Part shown: one piece after another, positions 3,315 to 14,526 of the stretch
Position numbering within the stretch: the first letter of the stretch is position 1
Layout: every line of letters starts with the position of its first letter
Assembly (NCBI RefSeq): GCF_016859125.1
Contig: NZ_CP069338.1
Location: 5,085,501-5,149,500, forward strand
DNA length: 64,000 nucleotides
Direction of reading: 5' to 3'
DNA from: Archangium violaceum
GTDB lineage: Bacteria; Myxococcota; Myxococcia; Myxococcales; Myxococcaceae
Notes under the pieces: model-generated
Seen by the model: the letters and a program-made list of their open reading frames with translations, nothing else
The model's database searches: none
Told to the model about the DNA's origin: nothing
Program-made: the position numbers and the translations under genes

Positions 3315-5180
3315 ATGCATCGTCGTGAGTTTCTTTTCGCCCTCCCGGCTGCGGCCCTGTTGGCCCGTCAAGCATTCGCCTCCGCGCCAGAGCCGACCCG
3401 GAAGAAGGGCGTCATGCTCATGAACCGGATCGGCCCGTCGACCTCGGAACTCTTCATCGCCAATGCCGACGGATCCGGCGAGCGCAAGTTCCTGCAAACC
3501 TCGGGCTTCGACTATCACGCCTCCTGGGCCCCGGATGGCAGAACGGTGCTCTTCACTTCCGAGCGCAACGGTGACGGCCAATCGGACATCTTCTGCAGCC
3601 GCCCGGACGGGACGGGCATCCATCCGTTGGTCACCGGCGCTCCGATGGACGATGCCGCGGTGCTTTCGCCTGACGGGACCCGCCTGGCGTTCGTTTCGAC
3701 CCGCGAGGGCTACCTCGCGAATATCTGGGTGCTGAACCTCAGGACCGGGCGCATGCTCAATCTGACGGGGGGCAAGAGCACCCAAGGCGACCTGAATGGT
3801 CCGCACGGCTTCTTCCGGCCCTCCTGGTCCCCCGACGGGAAGTGGCTCGCCTTCTCCAGCGACCGCAACACGCCCTGGCGTGGCCATGACCAGGGCCGTG
3901 GCTGGGAACACACCCAGGAACTCAGCATCTACGTGATTCGCGCCGACGGCACGGGCTTCCGCCGCGTCGCTTCGAAGCCGGAATACTGCCTGGGCTCACC
4001 GAAATGGTCACCCGACGGTCGCCGGATCGTCTTCTACGAAATCACCACGGAAGGCACGTGGGGCGCGCATCGCCCCGAGTGGATCGGCCGGGTCGAATCG
4101 CAGATCGTCTCGATTGACGTTGCCACGGGCGAACGGATCGAACACACGACTGGCCCCGGCCTCAAGCTGCTCCCTCAGTTCCTGAGCACGCAAGAGATCG
4201 GCTATCTCATCAAGGGAGGCCCGGAGGAGGGGCTGGCCTACACGTCCGGCAGAGCCGCCGTCAGACGCGCGTTGCGGTCGCCCAACTGGTCGCCGGATGG
4301 CAGGATGGTCATCTACGAGAAGGTCGGTTTCACCGCGCGCCCGCAGAACAAATCGCTCTACAGCTGGGACAAGGACTGGGAATACCGCCACACCGACGTG
4401 TTCCCGATCCTTTCGCGCGACGGCACGTTGGCGATCACCGAAAAGCAGCTCGGCAATTCCTCGATCGTGATCATGAATCCGGACGGCTCCAACCGCCGGG
4501 TCGTGTTCGACGTCGAAGGCAAGGGCCTCGACCCGGAGCTGGTGAAGAAGGGGCTCGCCGGAGCCTTCCAGCCGGCCTGGTCGCCGGACAGCCAGTGGAT
4601 CGCGTTCGGCATCGGCACCTGGTTCCAGGAGCGCCGTCACGGCAAGGCGACGCTGATGCGCGTGAGCCGGGACGGCACGTTCTGGGAGCCGCTCACCGAC
4701 GGCACGGCGCATTCGGGTTTTCCAAGCTACTCGGCCGACGGCAGGCAGATCGTGTTCCGCGTTTGGGGCGAGGACCAGAAGGGCCTGCGTATCCTCAATC
4801 TGGAGGACCGCGGCATTCGGGTGCTGACCACCGAGTACGACAACCTGCCGGGATGGTCGCCCGATGGCAGCCGCATCGTGTTCACGCGCAAGGTGGATGC
4901 CGTGAACTTCGACATCTTCACGATCCGGCCCGACGGAACCGACCTTCGGCGGCTCACGACGCATGGCGCCAATGACGGCCACGCCGTCTGGACCGCGGAC
5001 GGAAGAATCATGTGGAGCAGCGGCCTGTACGGCTTCCGCGACGAGGCCGCGCTCTACGACAATACCTTCCAGCCCTATGGCCAGATCTTCATCATGAACG
5101 CGGACGGCAGCGACAAGCGCATCATCACCGACAGCCTCTGGGAGGATTCCATGCCGCTCTACCTCCCAAGGGCACGCTGA
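3315..5180 (+). CDS. Tat-exported TolB-like beta-propeller (PD40) protein
   Basis: A 621-residue protein that starts MHRREFLFALPAAALLARQAFA, a short n-region with a twin-arginine and hydrophobic core, so export by Tat is likely. The rest is a chain of PD40/WD40-like blades. The phrases SPDGxxLAFxS and IFIMNADGSDKR recur about ten times, for example SWAPDGRTVLFTS, SWSPDGKWLAFSSDRN and GWSPDGSRIVFTRK. Such propellers resemble the C-terminal part of TolB and the N-terminal part of prolyl-oligopeptidases. No catalytic Ser-Asp-His domain follows, so this is a stand-alone binding or scaffold protein. AGGAG at 3302-3306 supports the start; GTG at 3312 is an alternative. Confidence 0.8.
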   Translation: MHRREFLFALPAAALLARQAFASAPEPTRKKGVMLMNRIGPSTSELFIANADGSGERKFLQTSGFDYHASWAPDGRTVLFTSERNGDGQSDIFCSRPDGTGIHPLVTGAPMDDAAVLSPDGTRLAFVSTREGYLANIWVLNLRTGRMLNLTGGKSTQGDLNGPHGFFRPSWSPDGKWLAFSSDRNTPWRGHDQGRGWEHTQELSIYVIRADGTGFRRVASKPEYCLGSPKWSPDGRRIVFYEITTEGTWGAHRPEWIGRVESQIVSIDVATGERIEHTTGPGLKLLPQFLSTQEIGYLIKGGPEEGLAYTSGRAAVRRALRSPNWSPDGRMVIYEKVGFTARPQNKSLYSWDKDWEYRHTDVFPILSRDGTLAITEKQLGNSSIVIMNPDGSNRRVVFDVEGKGLDPELVKKGLAGAFQPAWSPDSQWIAFGIGTWFQERRHGKATLMRVSRDGTFWEPLTDGTAHSGFPSYSADGRQIVFRVWGEDQKGLRILNLEDRGIRVLTTEYDNLPGWSPDGSRIVFTRKVDAVNFDIFTIRPDGTDLRRLTTHGANDGHAVWTADGRIMWSSGLYGFRDEAALYDNTFQPYGQIFIMNADGSDKRIITDSLWEDSMPLYLPRAR

Positions 5181-10168: not shown

Positions 10169-12007
10169 TCAATCCACCCAGAGGTAGATGGAGTCCGAGG
10201 CGGAGAGGCCCGCCGAGGTGACGGTCACGCGCAGGTCCGTCGCGTCACAGACCTGCTGGCCGTAGCTCGGGCCGGAGCCCACGTCCCTCCATGTCCCGTT
10301 GTCGTTCCTCTGCCAGAGGTAGGTGTAGTTGCCGTCACCGCCAATGGGATGCGCTGTCCAGGCGCCCTCCCAGCACCAATACCCCGCGGCGCTCGGACCA
10401 TCGATCCGCACGGCCAGGGTGCCGTTGAAGAGCTGAGCGATGGCCTGGCGCAGGTCGGGCAGCGGGCCGATCTTCCGCGAGTCGGAGGCCTGGGGCGTAC
10501 CGGTGCTGACCAGCAGCGAGCGCACGGTGCGCGAGTCGAGCGCACCACGGCCGTAGGCGAGGGAGATGCCCTGGAGGCTGGCGGCCGCGCCCGTCGCGAT
10601 GGGCGAGGCGCTGGAGGTGCCACTGAAGGTGGCCGTGTAGTACTGGTCCACGCCGCTGGAGAACAGGTCGCCGTACCCCATGGACACCACCTGCTCACCC
10701 CAACCGTGAACGTCCACGCGGCTGCCGAAGTTGGTCCAGCACATGGGAACACGCGTGGTGGCGGTGCTGGCGCCCACGAGGATGGCGCCCGAGTCCCGCA
10801 CCGCGCGGTTGAAGGCGTTGTTGTATGCGGCGGCATCCAGGTTGGCGCTGCCGTTGCCCGCCGCCTCGAGGACGATGACTCCGTTGGCGGTGGCCTGGGC
10901 GATGATGTCGTAATCGGCCTGCCAGTACTCCACGGCGACGTAGTTGCACTGACTGGTATTGCAGGTGCACGCCGTCCCATCGCTCGGCCCTTGCCGGTGG
11001 ACCTCGACGAGCAGAAGGCCGCCGGGGCCCGCCGCCGTCGCCGCTCGCGAGAGGGCGTTCGACAGCCCCTGGCTCAGGTGCGATTCGATACCCACCTGGG
11101 CCGAGTGAACGATGCCCGTCACGCCATAGCCATTGGCCGCGCCCACCAGCTCGCCGAGCACGGCGGTGCCATGGTCTCGCTTGTCACCCGCATCGCCGAT
11201 GTAGAAGAAACCGGGCATGTCCTCGTGCGTGGTGTTCCAGCCACTCTCGACGTCGACGATGCGCACGCCCGAGCCGCTGCCGCCGAGCACCGTCCAGGCG
11301 TAGCGCGCATCGATGCCGCGGGGCGCCGCGTCGAGGTAGCCCTGACGGCTCTCGTACAGCGGTGTGGTGGGGGGAAGGTCCGAGGCGGCCAGCAGGCTGC
11401 TCACCACGGTGTCGAGGCCCGCGCCCACCACCGCGGGCTCCGCGGGGGGCTCGGCATAGGCCACCTCCACGCTTTCCACGGCATTGAGCGCCTCCACCAG
11501 AGCGGCCACGCGTTCAGCGGTGGTGCCCGGCAGCAGAGGCACTTCGAAGTAGAGGTTGAGATCGGCGAGCTGCCGGCCGCTGGCGGACTCACCGGAGAGC
11601 TGGCGCGCTTCCAGCACGGCCTCGTCCTCCTGCAACAGGCGCCGGAGGCCATGCGTGCGCGGGGCGCGCTCGAGCAGGGACTGGACGGACCGGAGGTCGT
11701 CCGTGAGCCGCGCCTCGGTCAGTCCACGCCCGAAGAACCGGCTGCGCTCGGAGGAGGAGCGCTCGGAGGCGAGCGACGCCAGGGCGTTGCCACGCAGACG
11801 CACGCGGCTACCCTCGTGGAACTTGACGACGAGGCGCTCGACGAGCGTGTCGGGGGGCAGCTCGCGGCCGGAGTGCTTGACGACGGCGGCGCGAGGCATG
11901 AGGGGCCGGCTCGCGCGCTGCCGGGTCTGGGCTCCGGAGGCGCTGGCCCATAGGGCCACTCCCACCAACGCGACAGTGCGGCAATACGCCAGGTGCGATG
12001 ACTTCAT
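10169..12007 (-). CDS. secreted subtilisin-like (S8) serine protease
   Basis: A 612-residue exported protease with signal peptide ending near GAQTRQR and a long pro-region (~25-235) that probably acts as an intramolecular inhibitor. The S8 catalytic residues are visible: Asp in RIVDVESGW (about 251), His in DHGTAVLGE (about 279) and Ser in SGTSSASP (about 465). An oxyanion-type Asn is in EAAGNG. After the catalytic domain a small Ig-like region follows (residues ~530-612, GNYTYLWQRNDNGTW). Cys residues in a TACTCNTSQC stretch may form disulfides. GAGGAG five bases upstream sets the start at 12007. It is likely used in predation or nutrition, as is common for such enzymes in this group. Confidence 0.9.
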   Translation of the reverse strand: MKSSHLAYCRTVALVGVALWASASGAQTRQRASRPLMPRAAVVKHSGRELPPDTLVERLVVKFHEGSRVRLRGNALASLASERSSSERSRFFGRGLTEARLTDDLRSVQSLLERAPRTHGLRRLLQEDEAVLEARQLSGESASGRQLADLNLYFEVPLLPGTTAERVAALVEALNAVESVEVAYAEPPAEPAVVGAGLDTVVSSLLAASDLPPTTPLYESRQGYLDAAPRGIDARYAWTVLGGSGSGVRIVDVESGWNTTHEDMPGFFYIGDAGDKRDHGTAVLGELVGAANGYGVTGIVHSAQVGIESHLSQGLSNALSRAATAAGPGGLLLVEVHRQGPSDGTACTCNTSQCNYVAVEYWQADYDIIAQATANGVIVLEAAGNGSANLDAAAYNNAFNRAVRDSGAILVGASTATTRVPMCWTNFGSRVDVHGWGEQVVSMGYGDLFSSGVDQYYTATFSGTSSASPIATGAAASLQGISLAYGRGALDSRTVRSLLVSTGTPQASDSRKIGPLPDLRQAIAQLFNGTLAVRIDGPSAAGYWCWEGAWTAHPIGGDGNYTYLWQRNDNGTWRDVGSGPSYGQQVCDATDLRVTVTSAGLSASDSIYLWVD

Positions 12008-12191
12008 GCGGTCTCCTCGGGAGGAATGCGGGGGGCCTGCTTGGGTGGCGGCGGGTCCTCGCCTCCCGTGCACAGGGACCTCGCGTCACGCATGCATCGT
12101 GGTACACGGGTCTGACGCTGAATCAACGTTACACATGTGTTACATGAATCGCGGGGATTGGAGAGGCCTTGTCGCTCACCTCACGACCTGC

Positions 12192-13124: not shown

Positions 13125-13166
13125 CCAAAAGAAAAAGGGGTGCACGCTCGTGAGCGTGCACCCCTT
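13125..13166 (-). terminator. intrinsic terminator for the 13645-13190 gene
   Basis: Read on the minus strand, AAGGGGTGCACGCT and AGCGTGCACCCCTT form a perfect 14-bp stem with a CACG loop (13135-13166). It is followed directly by TTTTTCTTTT (down to about 13127). It is the clearest rho-independent terminator in the window. The rest of 12927-13189 shows nothing else. Confidence 0.9.
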
Positions 13167-13189
13167 GGAGTGAAGCGGAGTCGGGCCGA

Positions 13190-13645
13190 TCAGGCGGCGC
13201 GGAGCAGGTTGGCGACCTGGAACGCCGCGAACTGGCTCAGGTTGTACTTGTCGCCCTGCGCGGCAGGCGACTCGTCGCCCTTGCGGGTGCTCATCAGGCC
13301 CTTGACCAGGTCCAGGACCCCGCCCGTGCTGTTGGTCTGCGAGCCCAGGCCGATCACGGAGCCGAGACCCGTCTTGCTCAGGAGCGAACCCGCCTTGCCG
13401 AGCAGACCGCCAGCGAAGTTGTCCACGAGGCCGCCGATGATGCCCTTGAGGCCACCACCGTTGATGACGCTGTTCGCGATGCCGACGACCTTCGAGGCGG
13501 CCGCGATGAAGGGCCCGACGCCCGGGATGAACGAGGCAATCTTCCCGAGGGGTCCATTGAGAATCTTGCTCGCGAAGCCGACCGCCTTCTTGAAGACGCT
13601 GCCGATCTTCTTGAACGCCTTACCGATGCCCTTGATGAAACCCAT
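13190..13645 (-). CDS. cationic, Gly-rich amphipathic protein of unknown function
   Basis: A 151-residue protein with no family that I recognise. The first 30 residues (MGFIKGIGKAFKKIGSVFKK...) have Lys at 3-4 residue spacing between hydrophobic faces, the layout of a membrane-active amphipathic helix and reminiscent of magainin-type peptides. Residues 31-110 are hydrophobic and Gly-rich (FIPGVGPFIAAASKVVG, GGGLKGIIGGLV, GGLLGKAGSLLSK). The tail (about 115-151) is polar. No classical signal peptide or Cys-based modification motif is seen. It follows an acidic protein gene on the same strand by 127 bases and ends at a strong terminator, so the two are likely one transcript. It could be a bacteriocin-like or structural membrane-binding protein. 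Confidence 0.75.
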   Translation of the reverse strand: MGFIKGIGKAFKKIGSVFKKAVGFASKILNGPLGKIASFIPGVGPFIAAASKVVGIANSVINGGGLKGIIGGLVDNFAGGLLGKAGSLLSKTGLGSVIGLGSQTNSTGGVLDLVKGLMSTRKGDESPAAQGDKYNLSQFAAFQVANLLRAA

Positions 13646-13660
13646 GGCGGACCCCTCTTG

Positions 13661-13700
13661 TGTGGAAAGTTGAGTGCTGCTGTGGAAAGGAAGGTGCTGC
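13661..13700. repeat. tandem 20-bp imperfect repeat
   Basis: TGTGGAAAGTTGAGTGCTGC (13661-13680) is followed immediately by TGTGGAAAGGAAGGTGCTGC (13681-13700), 17 of 20 identical. It lies in the leader of the cationic protein gene and could affect translation or be a slippage product. Confidence 0.7.
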
Positions 13701-13772
13701 TTTGAAGGGATTATCGTGGGCAGCGGTAGGATGTTGTCTGCGGAAGGAATATTTCTCGAAAACCCAGTGAAA

Positions 13773-14198
13773 TCAAGGCTTTAGCGTGGTTCGGCTCTTC
13801 TTCACCGAATCATCGAGGTCGGGATCTGCCTTGGGTTTCACGGCCTCGCCGCCCTGGCCAGCCAGGTCCACGGCCTTCTTGCGAGGAGCCTCGAAACCGC
13901 TCGGGGACTGGCCGGCCTTGATGGCCTCGACGCTGGCTCGCACGTTGGCCTCGATGGCCTCGGCGGTGGGCGGCTCGACACCCATCTTCCTCAGGTTCTC
14001 GTCGCTGACCACGAGGAATGCGGGCTCCACACCCGGGTTGTTCAGGTAGTAGCCGACGGAGTTGACGAACTCGTCGATGTCCATCTCGAGTTCCGCGGCG
14101 ATCTTCGCCACGTTCGGATCCGCGAGGATCTTCGCGCGCAGCTCGGCGGAGATCGGCGGGGGGGCGTCGAGTTGCTCGATTTCGGTGTCATTGCTCAT
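13773..14198 (-). CDS. acidic hypothetical protein, partner of the cationic protein
   Basis: A 141-residue soluble protein that I do not recognise. The first half is acidic and helical (ISAELRAKILADPNVAKIAAELEMDIDEFVNSVGYYLNN) and somewhat resembles the nitrile-hydratase-leader style of some RiPP precursors, though no core peptide follows. The second half is disordered with Lys/Asp pairs. The start at 14198 has GGAG six bases upstream. Its acidic character complements the downstream cationic gene. An immunity, chaperone or co-secreted role is possible but unproven. Confidence 0.7.
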   Translation of the reverse strand: MSNDTEIEQLDAPPPISAELRAKILADPNVAKIAAELEMDIDEFVNSVGYYLNNPGVEPAFLVVSDENLRKMGVEPPTAEAIEANVRASVEAIKAGQSPSGFEAPRKKAVDLAGQGGEAVKPKADPDLDDSVKKSRTTLKP

Positions 14199-14229
14199 TC
14201 GAGGCTCCAGTGAAATGTTGGACGCGGAG

Positions 14230-14259
14230 AGTATGGTGGTGTCGTCCCGCCGTTGTCGA
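14230..14259 (-). promoter_or_regulatory. possible sigma-70-type promoter for the acidic/cationic pair
   Basis: Reading the minus strand, TCGACA (14259-14254), an 18-base spacer and CATACT (14235-14230) match the -35 and -10 consensus at 5/6 and 4/6. The predicted start point is about 25 bases before the ATG at 14198. The rest of the divergent gap up to 14526 shows nothing clear. Confidence 0.4.
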
Positions 14260-14526
14260 TGGGTAGCCTTGCCGGGCCACGGCGCCGTCACCAGTCAATC
14301 GAAGCACGGCCCCAGCATCAGGCCGCGGTCCCCTCGAACGAGAACTTCTTCTCCACTTCGGAATCTGGAGGTCGCCATGCGAGTCACGTGTGGCGCTTCT
14401 CTTGAGCCACGTGGGCGCCGGACGAGCTGGGGGCGGGCGCTGTGTCGGCCTCCTCATCCGGTCAGGCAGCCGGGTTGCAAATACAAGTCAGGTGCGACGG
14501 ACGAAGCGCGCCACTATCCTCCAGGG

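What the first reader, a model, noticed from the sequence alone, without database searches (positions are those of the whole stretch)
13190..14198. Cationic magainin-like protein paired with an acidic protein
The downstream protein starts with a Lys-rich amphipathic helix and continues with Gly-rich hydrophobic segments; the upstream one is acidic and helical. They share a promoter-like site and a strong terminator. The pairing recalls a membrane-active protein and a neutralising or carrier partner, and I know no family for either.
Basis: inference. Interest (0 to 1): 0.65.

Follow-up and report, generated by a model that had tools for sequence, protein, structure and literature searches.

The report
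Paired acidic and cationic myxobacterial proteins
Two small neighbouring genes make an acidic protein and a lysine-rich, probably membrane-binding protein that nearly always occur together in myxobacteria and match no named family; in a few distant relatives the lysines are largely replaced by arginines and an enzyme gene of a kind that turns arginine into a lysine-like amino acid lies nearby.

Summary
Window 13773-14198(-) encodes an acidic 141-aa protein (A, pI 4.5); 13190-13645(-) encodes a basic 151-aa protein (B, pI 10.3) with a strongly amphipathic Lys-rich start. A conserved promoter-like site precedes A, a strong terminator follows B, and a second promoter-like site lies between them.

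The pair is a near-obligate unit: of 85 distinct A sequences examined, 80 have a B directly downstream and 2 have it adjacent in another arrangement. The A profile matches 91 of 195 genomes of the phylum, one to four copies each. Neither protein matches a family convincingly.

B ends in a near-invariant motif (N-x5-A-x3-A). In Myxococcaceae its first 45 residues use Lys over Arg 385:26; neighbouring genes show the opposite (278:1329). Near five distant pairs lies an arginase gene, and there this segment is Arg-rich (24:12; seven unlinked pairs 5:36). A sixth pair near an arginase (L066) stays Lys-only. This hints that B's helix needs primary amines: Lys, or Orn made from Arg.

Best explanation, without experiment: B is a leaderless membrane-binding protein and A its dedicated partner. 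Export, target and toxicity are unknown; an internal structural role remains a serious rival.

The parts
14230..14259 (-). promoter-like site P1 upstream of A (TCGACA ... CATACT)
   Evidence: 9 of 12 positions; 0.3 expected in the region; TCGAC invariant in 11 of 11 window-type loci aligned, -10-like half less strictly kept
13773..14198 (-). gene A: acidic 141-aa protein; helical domain about residues 11-95, low-confidence tail
   Evidence: profile matches 91 of 195 genomes of the phylum
13710..13738 (-). intergenic promoter-like element P2 (GACAAC-N17-GATAAT) ahead of B
   Evidence: largely kept in 11 aligned window-type loci; coordinates read; against it: -10-like sites are not clearly enriched over 77 intergenic regions (16 against a shuffle mean of 10.9)
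13190..13645 (-). gene B: basic 151-aa Gly-rich helical protein
   Evidence: B-like gene downstream of 80 of 85 distinct A rows
13559..13642 (-). Lys-rich amphipathic N-terminal helix of B (residues 2-29)
   Evidence: helical moment of residues 2-26 reached by 0 of 5000 shuffles; helix 3-29 in the low-confidence model
13211..13243 (-). C-terminal motif of B, N-x5-A-x3-A (residues 135-145)
   Evidence: N135 invariant, A141 and A145 at 90% or more in 68 aligned B rows; a slightly looser pattern is in the last 35 residues of 76 of 80 paired B
13135..13166 (-). intrinsic terminator after B
   Evidence: z -5.5
13127..14269 (-). whole ~1.13-kb unit, P1 to terminator, conserved as one DNA block at different places
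   Evidence: five of eight related genomes give blocks starting at query 1019-1029 and ending at 2160-2170; G005 has 1028-2087 and G010 1100-2072; G004 has none; 13 loci share only A and/or B, except two pairs of loci and one weak hit

Best explanation
A and B form one two-protein module. B is made without a classical signal peptide (judged by eye) as a cationic, amphipathic, Gly-rich helical protein that binds membranes through its N-terminal helix. That helix prefers primary-amine side chains: Lys in most lineages, or Arg that a neighbouring arginase (and in one operon a JmjC hydroxylase) could convert to Orn or hydroxy-Orn. A is B's dedicated acidic partner: its helical domain recognises B, most simply at the conserved C-terminal motif, and keeps B soluble or harmless until it reaches a membrane. 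Shown: pairing, purifying selection, charge and amphipathicity, conserved motif, transcription-like signals, a co-occurrence of nearby arginase genes with Arg-rich helices in five of six such loci. Inferred: membrane binding, A-B contact, Arg-to-Orn conversion, delivery. Unknown: target membrane and export route.
For: Pairing 80 of 85 plus 2; tree agreement. A acidic (pI<7) in 72 of 80, B basic (pI>9) in 76 of 80. Amphipathic helix. Motif N-x5-A-x3-A kept although B rows fall as low as 16% identity with window B. Lys:Arg 385:26 in the first 45 residues of 73 Myxococcaceae B rows against 278:1329 in the first 45 of 292 neighbouring genes. Arginase-family genes (PF00491) lie beside or near five distant pairs; there B's first 45 residues are Arg:Lys 24:12 against 5:36 in seven unlinked pairs, reached by 1 of 792 relabelings (the observed one). 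Controls: neighbouring genes (Arg fraction 0.76 and 0.77) and A proteins (52:50 and 91:102) show no such shift, and the rest of B shows less (10:17 and 13:40). Metal-site motifs are present in 7 of 7 arginases checked. The arginase and JmjC genes next to A in L156 recall a published enzyme pair that makes and hydroxylates peptide Orn (PMC12257519, PMC12707348, passages).
Against: No experiment. B's fold is uncertain (pLDDT 62). A sixth pair, L066 in the own family, has a PF00491 gene about 1 kb upstream of A (other strand, one gene between) yet its B start has 8 Lys and no Arg; counting it as linked gives 24:20 and 9 of 1716 relabelings. Of the five linked loci two come from one genome (G112) and in one (L157) the arginase is about 5 kb away; the relabeling ignores kinship. 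Of the seven unlinked pairs three are from the own family and two lie on contigs of 3.1-3.3 kb where a linked arginase could not be seen. Eight Myxococcaceae B rows, all of one Gly/Ser-rich type, have more Arg than Lys. The arginases are PF00491, not the UPF0489 type of the studied peptide arginases, and a recognition-domain test of their N-termini was not positive (hhalign probability 3.7%). No secretion gene recurs beside all types; only one paralogue type has an MFS transporter gene right after B. One genome has a solo B.
Confidence: 0.4

Rival explanations
1. B is an intracellular or envelope structural protein, for instance a coat of lipid bodies, storage granules or membranes (phasin- or perilipin-like), and A is its assembly partner; nothing is exported or toxic.
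For: Three of 68 B rows match Phasin_2 weakly (best 7.7e-4). One paralogue type keeps its neighbours over 10-12 loci, and the A profile matches 83 of 96 genomes of the family, as for a housekeeping part. M. xanthus makes lipid bodies in development (PMC4048283, start of abstract in the listing). No secretion gene recurs across types.
Against: The phasin hits are few and weak; Arg-modifying enzymes beside a granule coat would be unusual; B close to the window type is patchy (28 of 96 genomes have a tblastn match, one of them, G042, since dropped as another family).
Confidence: 0.28
2. B is a bacteriocin-like killer protein and A its immunity protein.
For: Cationic amphipathic start, acidic partner, compact unit found at different places; one of 68 B rows matches a frog antimicrobial-peptide model (3.7e-4); in one paralogue type an MFS transporter gene follows B by 76-77 bases (L073, L076, L102).
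Against: Window-type A and B are under purifying, not diversifying, selection; up to four A copies coexist in one genome; the A model shows soluble-looking helices.
Confidence: 0.14
3. A is a regulator: a helix-turn-helix protein that controls its own unit.
For: Two of 65 A rows match Sigma-70 region 3 (best 1.4e-4); the insignificant best fold hits include small DNA-binding domains.
Against: A is acidic, mostly in its helical domain (counted by eye); no fold hit is significant (best E 1.7); A and B sequences diverge in step.
Confidence: 0.1
4. The pair is a domesticated phage piece (tail or internal virion protein with a chaperone).
For: Weak PHROG hits of B rows to tape-measure models; a small acetyltransferase-like gene that starts 4-13 bases after B in four loci has relatives matching phrog_17252 (1.7e-5).
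Against: No match for window A or B in 50,697 phage records; scans of viral contigs with four proteins gave one local match, inside a 469-aa protein, judged low complexity; no phage structural gene was recognised by eye beside the pairs read.
Confidence: 0.05

Closest known systems
Leaderless bacteriocins (only a search listing seen; features recalled)
   Same: no leader, Lys-rich amphipathic start (recalled description)
   Different: B is about three times longer, Gly-rich, with a near-universal C-terminal motif and an acidic partner; activity untested
Arginase-containing RiPP pathways (OspR/landornamide, FlmR/OhkR, biphenomycin; PMC12703449 abstract, passages and section 2.1; PMC12257519 and PMC12707348 passages)
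   Same: an arginase gene, in L156 with a JmjC gene, next to or near a small ribosomal product rich in Arg
   Different: arginase of PF00491, not UPF0489; product of 128-140 aa in the linked loci; no cleavage site or other RiPP enzyme recognised beside the pairs; most pairs have no arginase
Phasins (PF09361)
   Same: small amphipathic helical protein; 3 of 68 B rows match weakly
   Different: no granule gene recognised beside the pairs; the match is not general
Secretion chaperone-client pairs
   Same: small acidic protein encoded beside its possible client
   Different: A's predicted helical fold gives no significant hit; no secretion apparatus recurs nearby

Membership tests
Leaderless bacteriocin | short peptide (recalled: about 30-60 residues) active without processing | tested here: not met
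   B is 151 aa in the window and 127-232 aa among relatives
Leaderless bacteriocin | cationic amphipathic helix at the start | tested here: met
Leaderless bacteriocin | antibacterial activity | not testable with these tools
   no assay
RiPP with peptide arginase | maturation enzyme gene linked to the precursor | tested here: inconclusive
   PF00491 gene near 5 distant pairs and near one Myxococcaceae pair, L066, with a Lys-only B start; none recognised beside the window pair
RiPP with peptide arginase | arginase of the UPF0489 type with its motifs | tested here: not met
   PF00491 in 5 of 5 linked genes, with GGDHS/DAHxD motifs; motifs of the studied type quoted
RiPP with peptide arginase | recognition domain for the precursor | tested here: inconclusive
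   N-terminal extension seen in 5 arginases aligned (3 linked, 2 not); comparison with PqqD not positive, on 5 and 3 rows only
Toxin-immunity or toxin-antitoxin pair | toxin gene does not occur without its partner | tested here: inconclusive
   solo B in G002, but that genome has A genes elsewhere
Phasin | match to a phasin model | tested here: inconclusive
   3 of 68 rows, best 7.7e-4; window B none
Phage structural protein | homologue in phages | tested here: inconclusive
   none; one local match judged low complexity

The most novel reading that the evidence does not exclude
A new class of myxobacterial membrane-active protein: full-length, leaderless, with a near-obligate acidic partner, whose helix must carry primary amines, so that lineages that encode Arg instead of Lys bring enzymes that turn it into ornithine, even hydroxy-ornithine, in a product of protein size; the unit is found at different genomic sites as a 1.1-kb promoter-to-terminator cassette.
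Probability: 0.22. Interest if true: 0.85.

Novelty: new variant of a known kind. Interest (0 to 1): 0.56.

Why it matters
A two-gene family in 83 of 96 genomes of one bacterial family, in one to four copies, without a name or function, is a sizeable gap in a group studied for predation and multicellularity. The Lys/Arg pattern gives a cheap and sharp prediction: mass spectrometry of B from an arginase-linked strain should show Arg without its guanidine. If so, ornithine formation in a product of about 130 residues by a PF00491 enzyme would extend peptide-arginase chemistry and say what the N-terminal helix needs.

Tried and rejected
Family libraries: Pfam, NCBIfam, PHROGs and PADLOC for the window proteins, Pfam for the rows of A3 and A4: only scattered weak hits. 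Solved structures by profile: for A best 0.028 (a histone); for B best 1.6e-7 to a designed coiled-coil protein, then other designs, tape-measure and glycoprotein B stretches, read as composition. Fold search with the A model: best Foldseek E 1.7, best VIA Z 2.2 over 40 residues (AtaR); an unlisted family is not excluded. The B model was too weak and was not searched.

Phage or plasmid origin: no phage-record match for window A or B, no plasmid match for two A proteins (B was not searched there).

The 387-aa protein at L092 (G042) was first picked up by a B search; its sequence has an FE-rich start and no C-terminal motif; dropped as another family.

Locus tags: the pair beside a Clp/Hsp100-like gene (L102) was guessed from memory to lie near MXAN_4832 of M. 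xanthus; a search for tags 4831-4834 found two papers naming only 4832 (listing). Not used. Other literature searches without use: no paper; spore proteins, listing only.

Lineage effect as a cause of the Arg shift: neighbouring genes and A show no shift, but kinship of the loci was not modelled and adjacency of arginases was not tested against random genes. Two close arginase relatives (G112:C206, G110:C123) have no A or B nearby by profile, the first on a 6.6-kb contig.

Counts: A rows are distinct sequences (85 from 165 hit ORFs; many loci overlap). Alignment A3 has 65 rows and A4 68, chosen from 85 and 85. Gene calls come from a simple script based on G+C by codon position, not a trained gene finder. 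The B profile was built from proteins partly found as neighbours of A, so the pair count leans on that choice; the tree agreement and the motif are the more independent signs. One unlinked B row (L149) starts too early and brings 3 of the 5 Arg of its group.

Full report
What is there. On the minus strand of the window two ORFs follow each other: A (13773-14198, 141 aa) and B (13190-13645, 151 aa). The listing's longer A ORF starts at a GTG upstream; the ATG at 14198 is taken because close relatives align from there. A carries charge -9 and pI 4.5, B +12 and pI 10.3; B is 19% Gly; residues 2-26 of B are strongly amphipathic by hydrophobic moment (0 of 5000 shuffles). Both genes are under purifying selection against six orthologues (dN/dS 0.24-0.37 and 0.24-0.56).

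Signals. A -35/-10-like site precedes A. Among 11 window-type loci aligned the DNA upstream is otherwise hardly alignable, but TCGAC is invariant and the -10-like part is kept less strictly. Between A and B a second element (GACAAC-N17-GATAAT in the window) stands out, so the two genes need not share one promoter only. Over all groups the intergenic -10-like sites are not clearly enriched (16 of 77 against 10.9 in shuffles), those before A are (14 of 79 against 4.3). A terminator with a 14-pair stem follows B, and terminator-like sites follow 64 of 80 B genes (23.4 in shuffles).

Distribution and pairing. By tblastn with the window proteins B is matched in 28 of 96 genomes of the family (one, G042, since dropped) and A in 81 of 96. 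Reading downstream of divergent A genes showed B-like ORFs there too, of different sequence types. With the A profile, 91 of 195 genomes of the phylum match: 83 of 96 in the own family and 8 of 99 outside. Of 85 distinct A rows, 80 have B downstream on the same strand; L143 has B convergent and L154 has B just upstream; L107, L150 and L151 have no B by profile. In L163 (the place of L150) and L167 (of L151) the next ORF has a similar C-terminal stretch by eye. A and B trees of 82 pairs agree (r 0.753, 0 of 2000 permutations; adjusted Rand index 0.90 for eight clusters). Genome G002 has, besides a full pair, a B alone whose matching DNA runs only from the terminator to about 20 bases before B's start; it is 96% identical to that genome's paired B. 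It reads as a recent partial copy.

A compact unit. In 13 loci (12 window-type pairs or distant kin and the solo B) nothing but A and B is shared in almost every comparison, the exceptions being L061-L067, L064-L070 and one weak hit L062-L088. Searching eight related genomes with 4 kb of window DNA gave a block from query 1019-1029 to 2160-2170 in five (G002, G003, G006, G041, G079), a shorter one in G005 (1028-2087) and G010 (1100-2072), and none in G004; where the left-hand methyltransferase was found it lay at other coordinates or on another contig. The block equals promoter-like site to terminator. No transposase was recognised beside it in the window; how it moves is not known. By contrast, another paralogue type keeps its neighbours: a SCO1-like gene in 11 loci, a truncated activator-like gene in 12, a UspA-like and a pilin-like gene in 10 each (gene names by eye).

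Genes right after B differ by type: an MFS transporter gene (Pfam MFS_1 in L102) after 76-77 bases in L073, L076 and L102; a small acetyltransferase-like gene after 4-13 bases in L075, L078, L080 and L104 (relatives match phrog_17252). The first could export something, the second could acylate Lys; neither is general.

Anatomy. A3 (65 rows) gives a confident helical domain, residues ~11-95, and a low-confidence tail; no significant fold match. Counted by eye, the negative charge sits in the domain. B's model is all helix with low confidence; its best part is the C-terminal helix 127-150. In 68 B rows N135 is invariant and A141 and A145 are kept at 90% or more. A motif shared over rows as low as 16% identical to window B asks for a common binding partner; A is the only other constant component seen.

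Lys against Arg. In 73 Myxococcaceae B rows the first 45 residues hold 385 Lys and 26 Arg; in the first 45 residues of 292 neighbouring genes it is 278 and 1329. Eight rows, all Gly/Ser-rich at the start, go the other way. Arginase-family genes (PF00491) lie beside or near five pairs outside the family: L159 and L160 (arginase, A, B in a row; the L160 gene is cut by the contig end), L156 (arginase, A, JmjC_2 in a row, B convergent), L155 (convergent with A) and L157 (about 5 kb away). The first 45 residues of those B proteins hold 24 Arg and 12 Lys; those of seven unlinked rows fetched late hold 5 and 36; 1 of 792 relabelings reaches the difference. Three of the seven are from the own family (L142, L152, L168), and two (L146, L168) lie on contigs of 3.1-3.3 kb. 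Controls: neighbouring genes have the same Arg fraction (0.76 and 0.77), A proteins do not differ (5 and 9 rows, 52:50 and 91:102), and beyond residue 45 B differs less (10:17 and 13:40). All seven arginases checked, two of them from loci without the pair, keep the metal-site motifs.

A counter-example. The neighbourhood clustering also put L066, a window-type pair of the own family, among the arginase loci: a PF00491 gene lies about 1 kb upstream of A on the other strand, with one gene between, and the B start holds 8 Lys and no Arg. Counted as linked, the contrast falls to 24:20 against 5:36 and 9 of 1716 relabelings. It is not arranged as an operon with the pair, nor is L157. Relatives of the L159 arginase occur in 165 of 195 genomes, so only close linkage can count, and that was not tested against random genes. 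The Orn idea is therefore a lead.

What the literature adds. Peptide arginases are known from RiPP pathways; the studied ones carry motifs of another family (PMC12703449 section 2.1; PMC12707348 passages). In biphenomycin-type synthesis an arginase makes ornithine and a cupin (PMC12257519) or JmjC (PMC12707348) enzyme hydroxylates it (passages). The gene pair in L156 thus has a precedent, on a short peptide. An N-terminal extension of these arginases looked to me like a RiPP recognition domain, but comparison with PqqD domains of the own genome gave 3.7% probability. A paper on in silico antimicrobial peptides of myxobacteria treats peptides of 20-80 residues (PMC9839799, passages), which would leave out full-length B. 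Searches that listed nothing recognisable on this pair: (listings); most subscription papers and all supplements are outside them.

Reading. The evidence supports a real, widespread two-protein module whose B has a selected Lys-type cationic helix and a near-universal C-terminal motif. Membrane binding is the natural use of such a helix, and an acidic partner encoded upstream is the natural keeper; both are inference. Sequence alone cannot separate an exported membrane-active protein from an internal membrane or lipid-body protein: no secretion or granule gene recurs across types. I give the module reading 0.40, the structural rival 0.28, and keep the ornithine part as the sharpest testable prediction.

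Noticed in passing
L205:6352-17369 (G062:C1, about 4.936-4.947 Mb): Myxococcus cluster with arginase-like genes alternating with JmjC-like genes and a radical-SAM-like gene, no A-B by profile; resembles a biphenomycin-type RiPP cluster (names by eye; arginase matches)
   Followed up: partly
L092:13045-15378 (G042:C14): Two proteins with FE-rich acidic starts followed by Arg-rich amphipathic parts; no Pfam hit for the first; recalled as typical of contractile-injection neighbourhoods
   Followed up: no
L155:10646-12485 (G112:C762): A DUF1521-like protein (22.6 bits, just under the 23.6 cut-off) and a 137-aa unknown stand directly upstream of B; DUF1521 is recalled as an autocleaving domain of secreted proteins
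   Followed up: no
L075, L078, L080, L104 (4-13 bases after B); L097 (divergent from A); L083 (about 3 kb upstream of A): A small acetyltransferase-like protein recurs near pairs; two of its members match phrog_17252
   Followed up: partly
L073:8222, L076, L102:8669: MFS transporter gene 76-77 bases after B on the same strand in one paralogue type
   Followed up: partly
L088:6873-7328 (G002): A second B copy without A beside it, 96% identical to the paired B of the same genome, with terminator but without the intergenic element
   Followed up: partly
G039:C1:738454, G041:C32:62033, G040:C180:4111: A-family matches with an in-frame TAG inside the profile match: decayed copies, or only matches that run past the gene's end
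   Followed up: no
window:7925-9997 and 10169-12073: Large secreted-looking proteins further downstream of the pair: one cellulase-like by eye, one S8 subtilase
   Followed up: no
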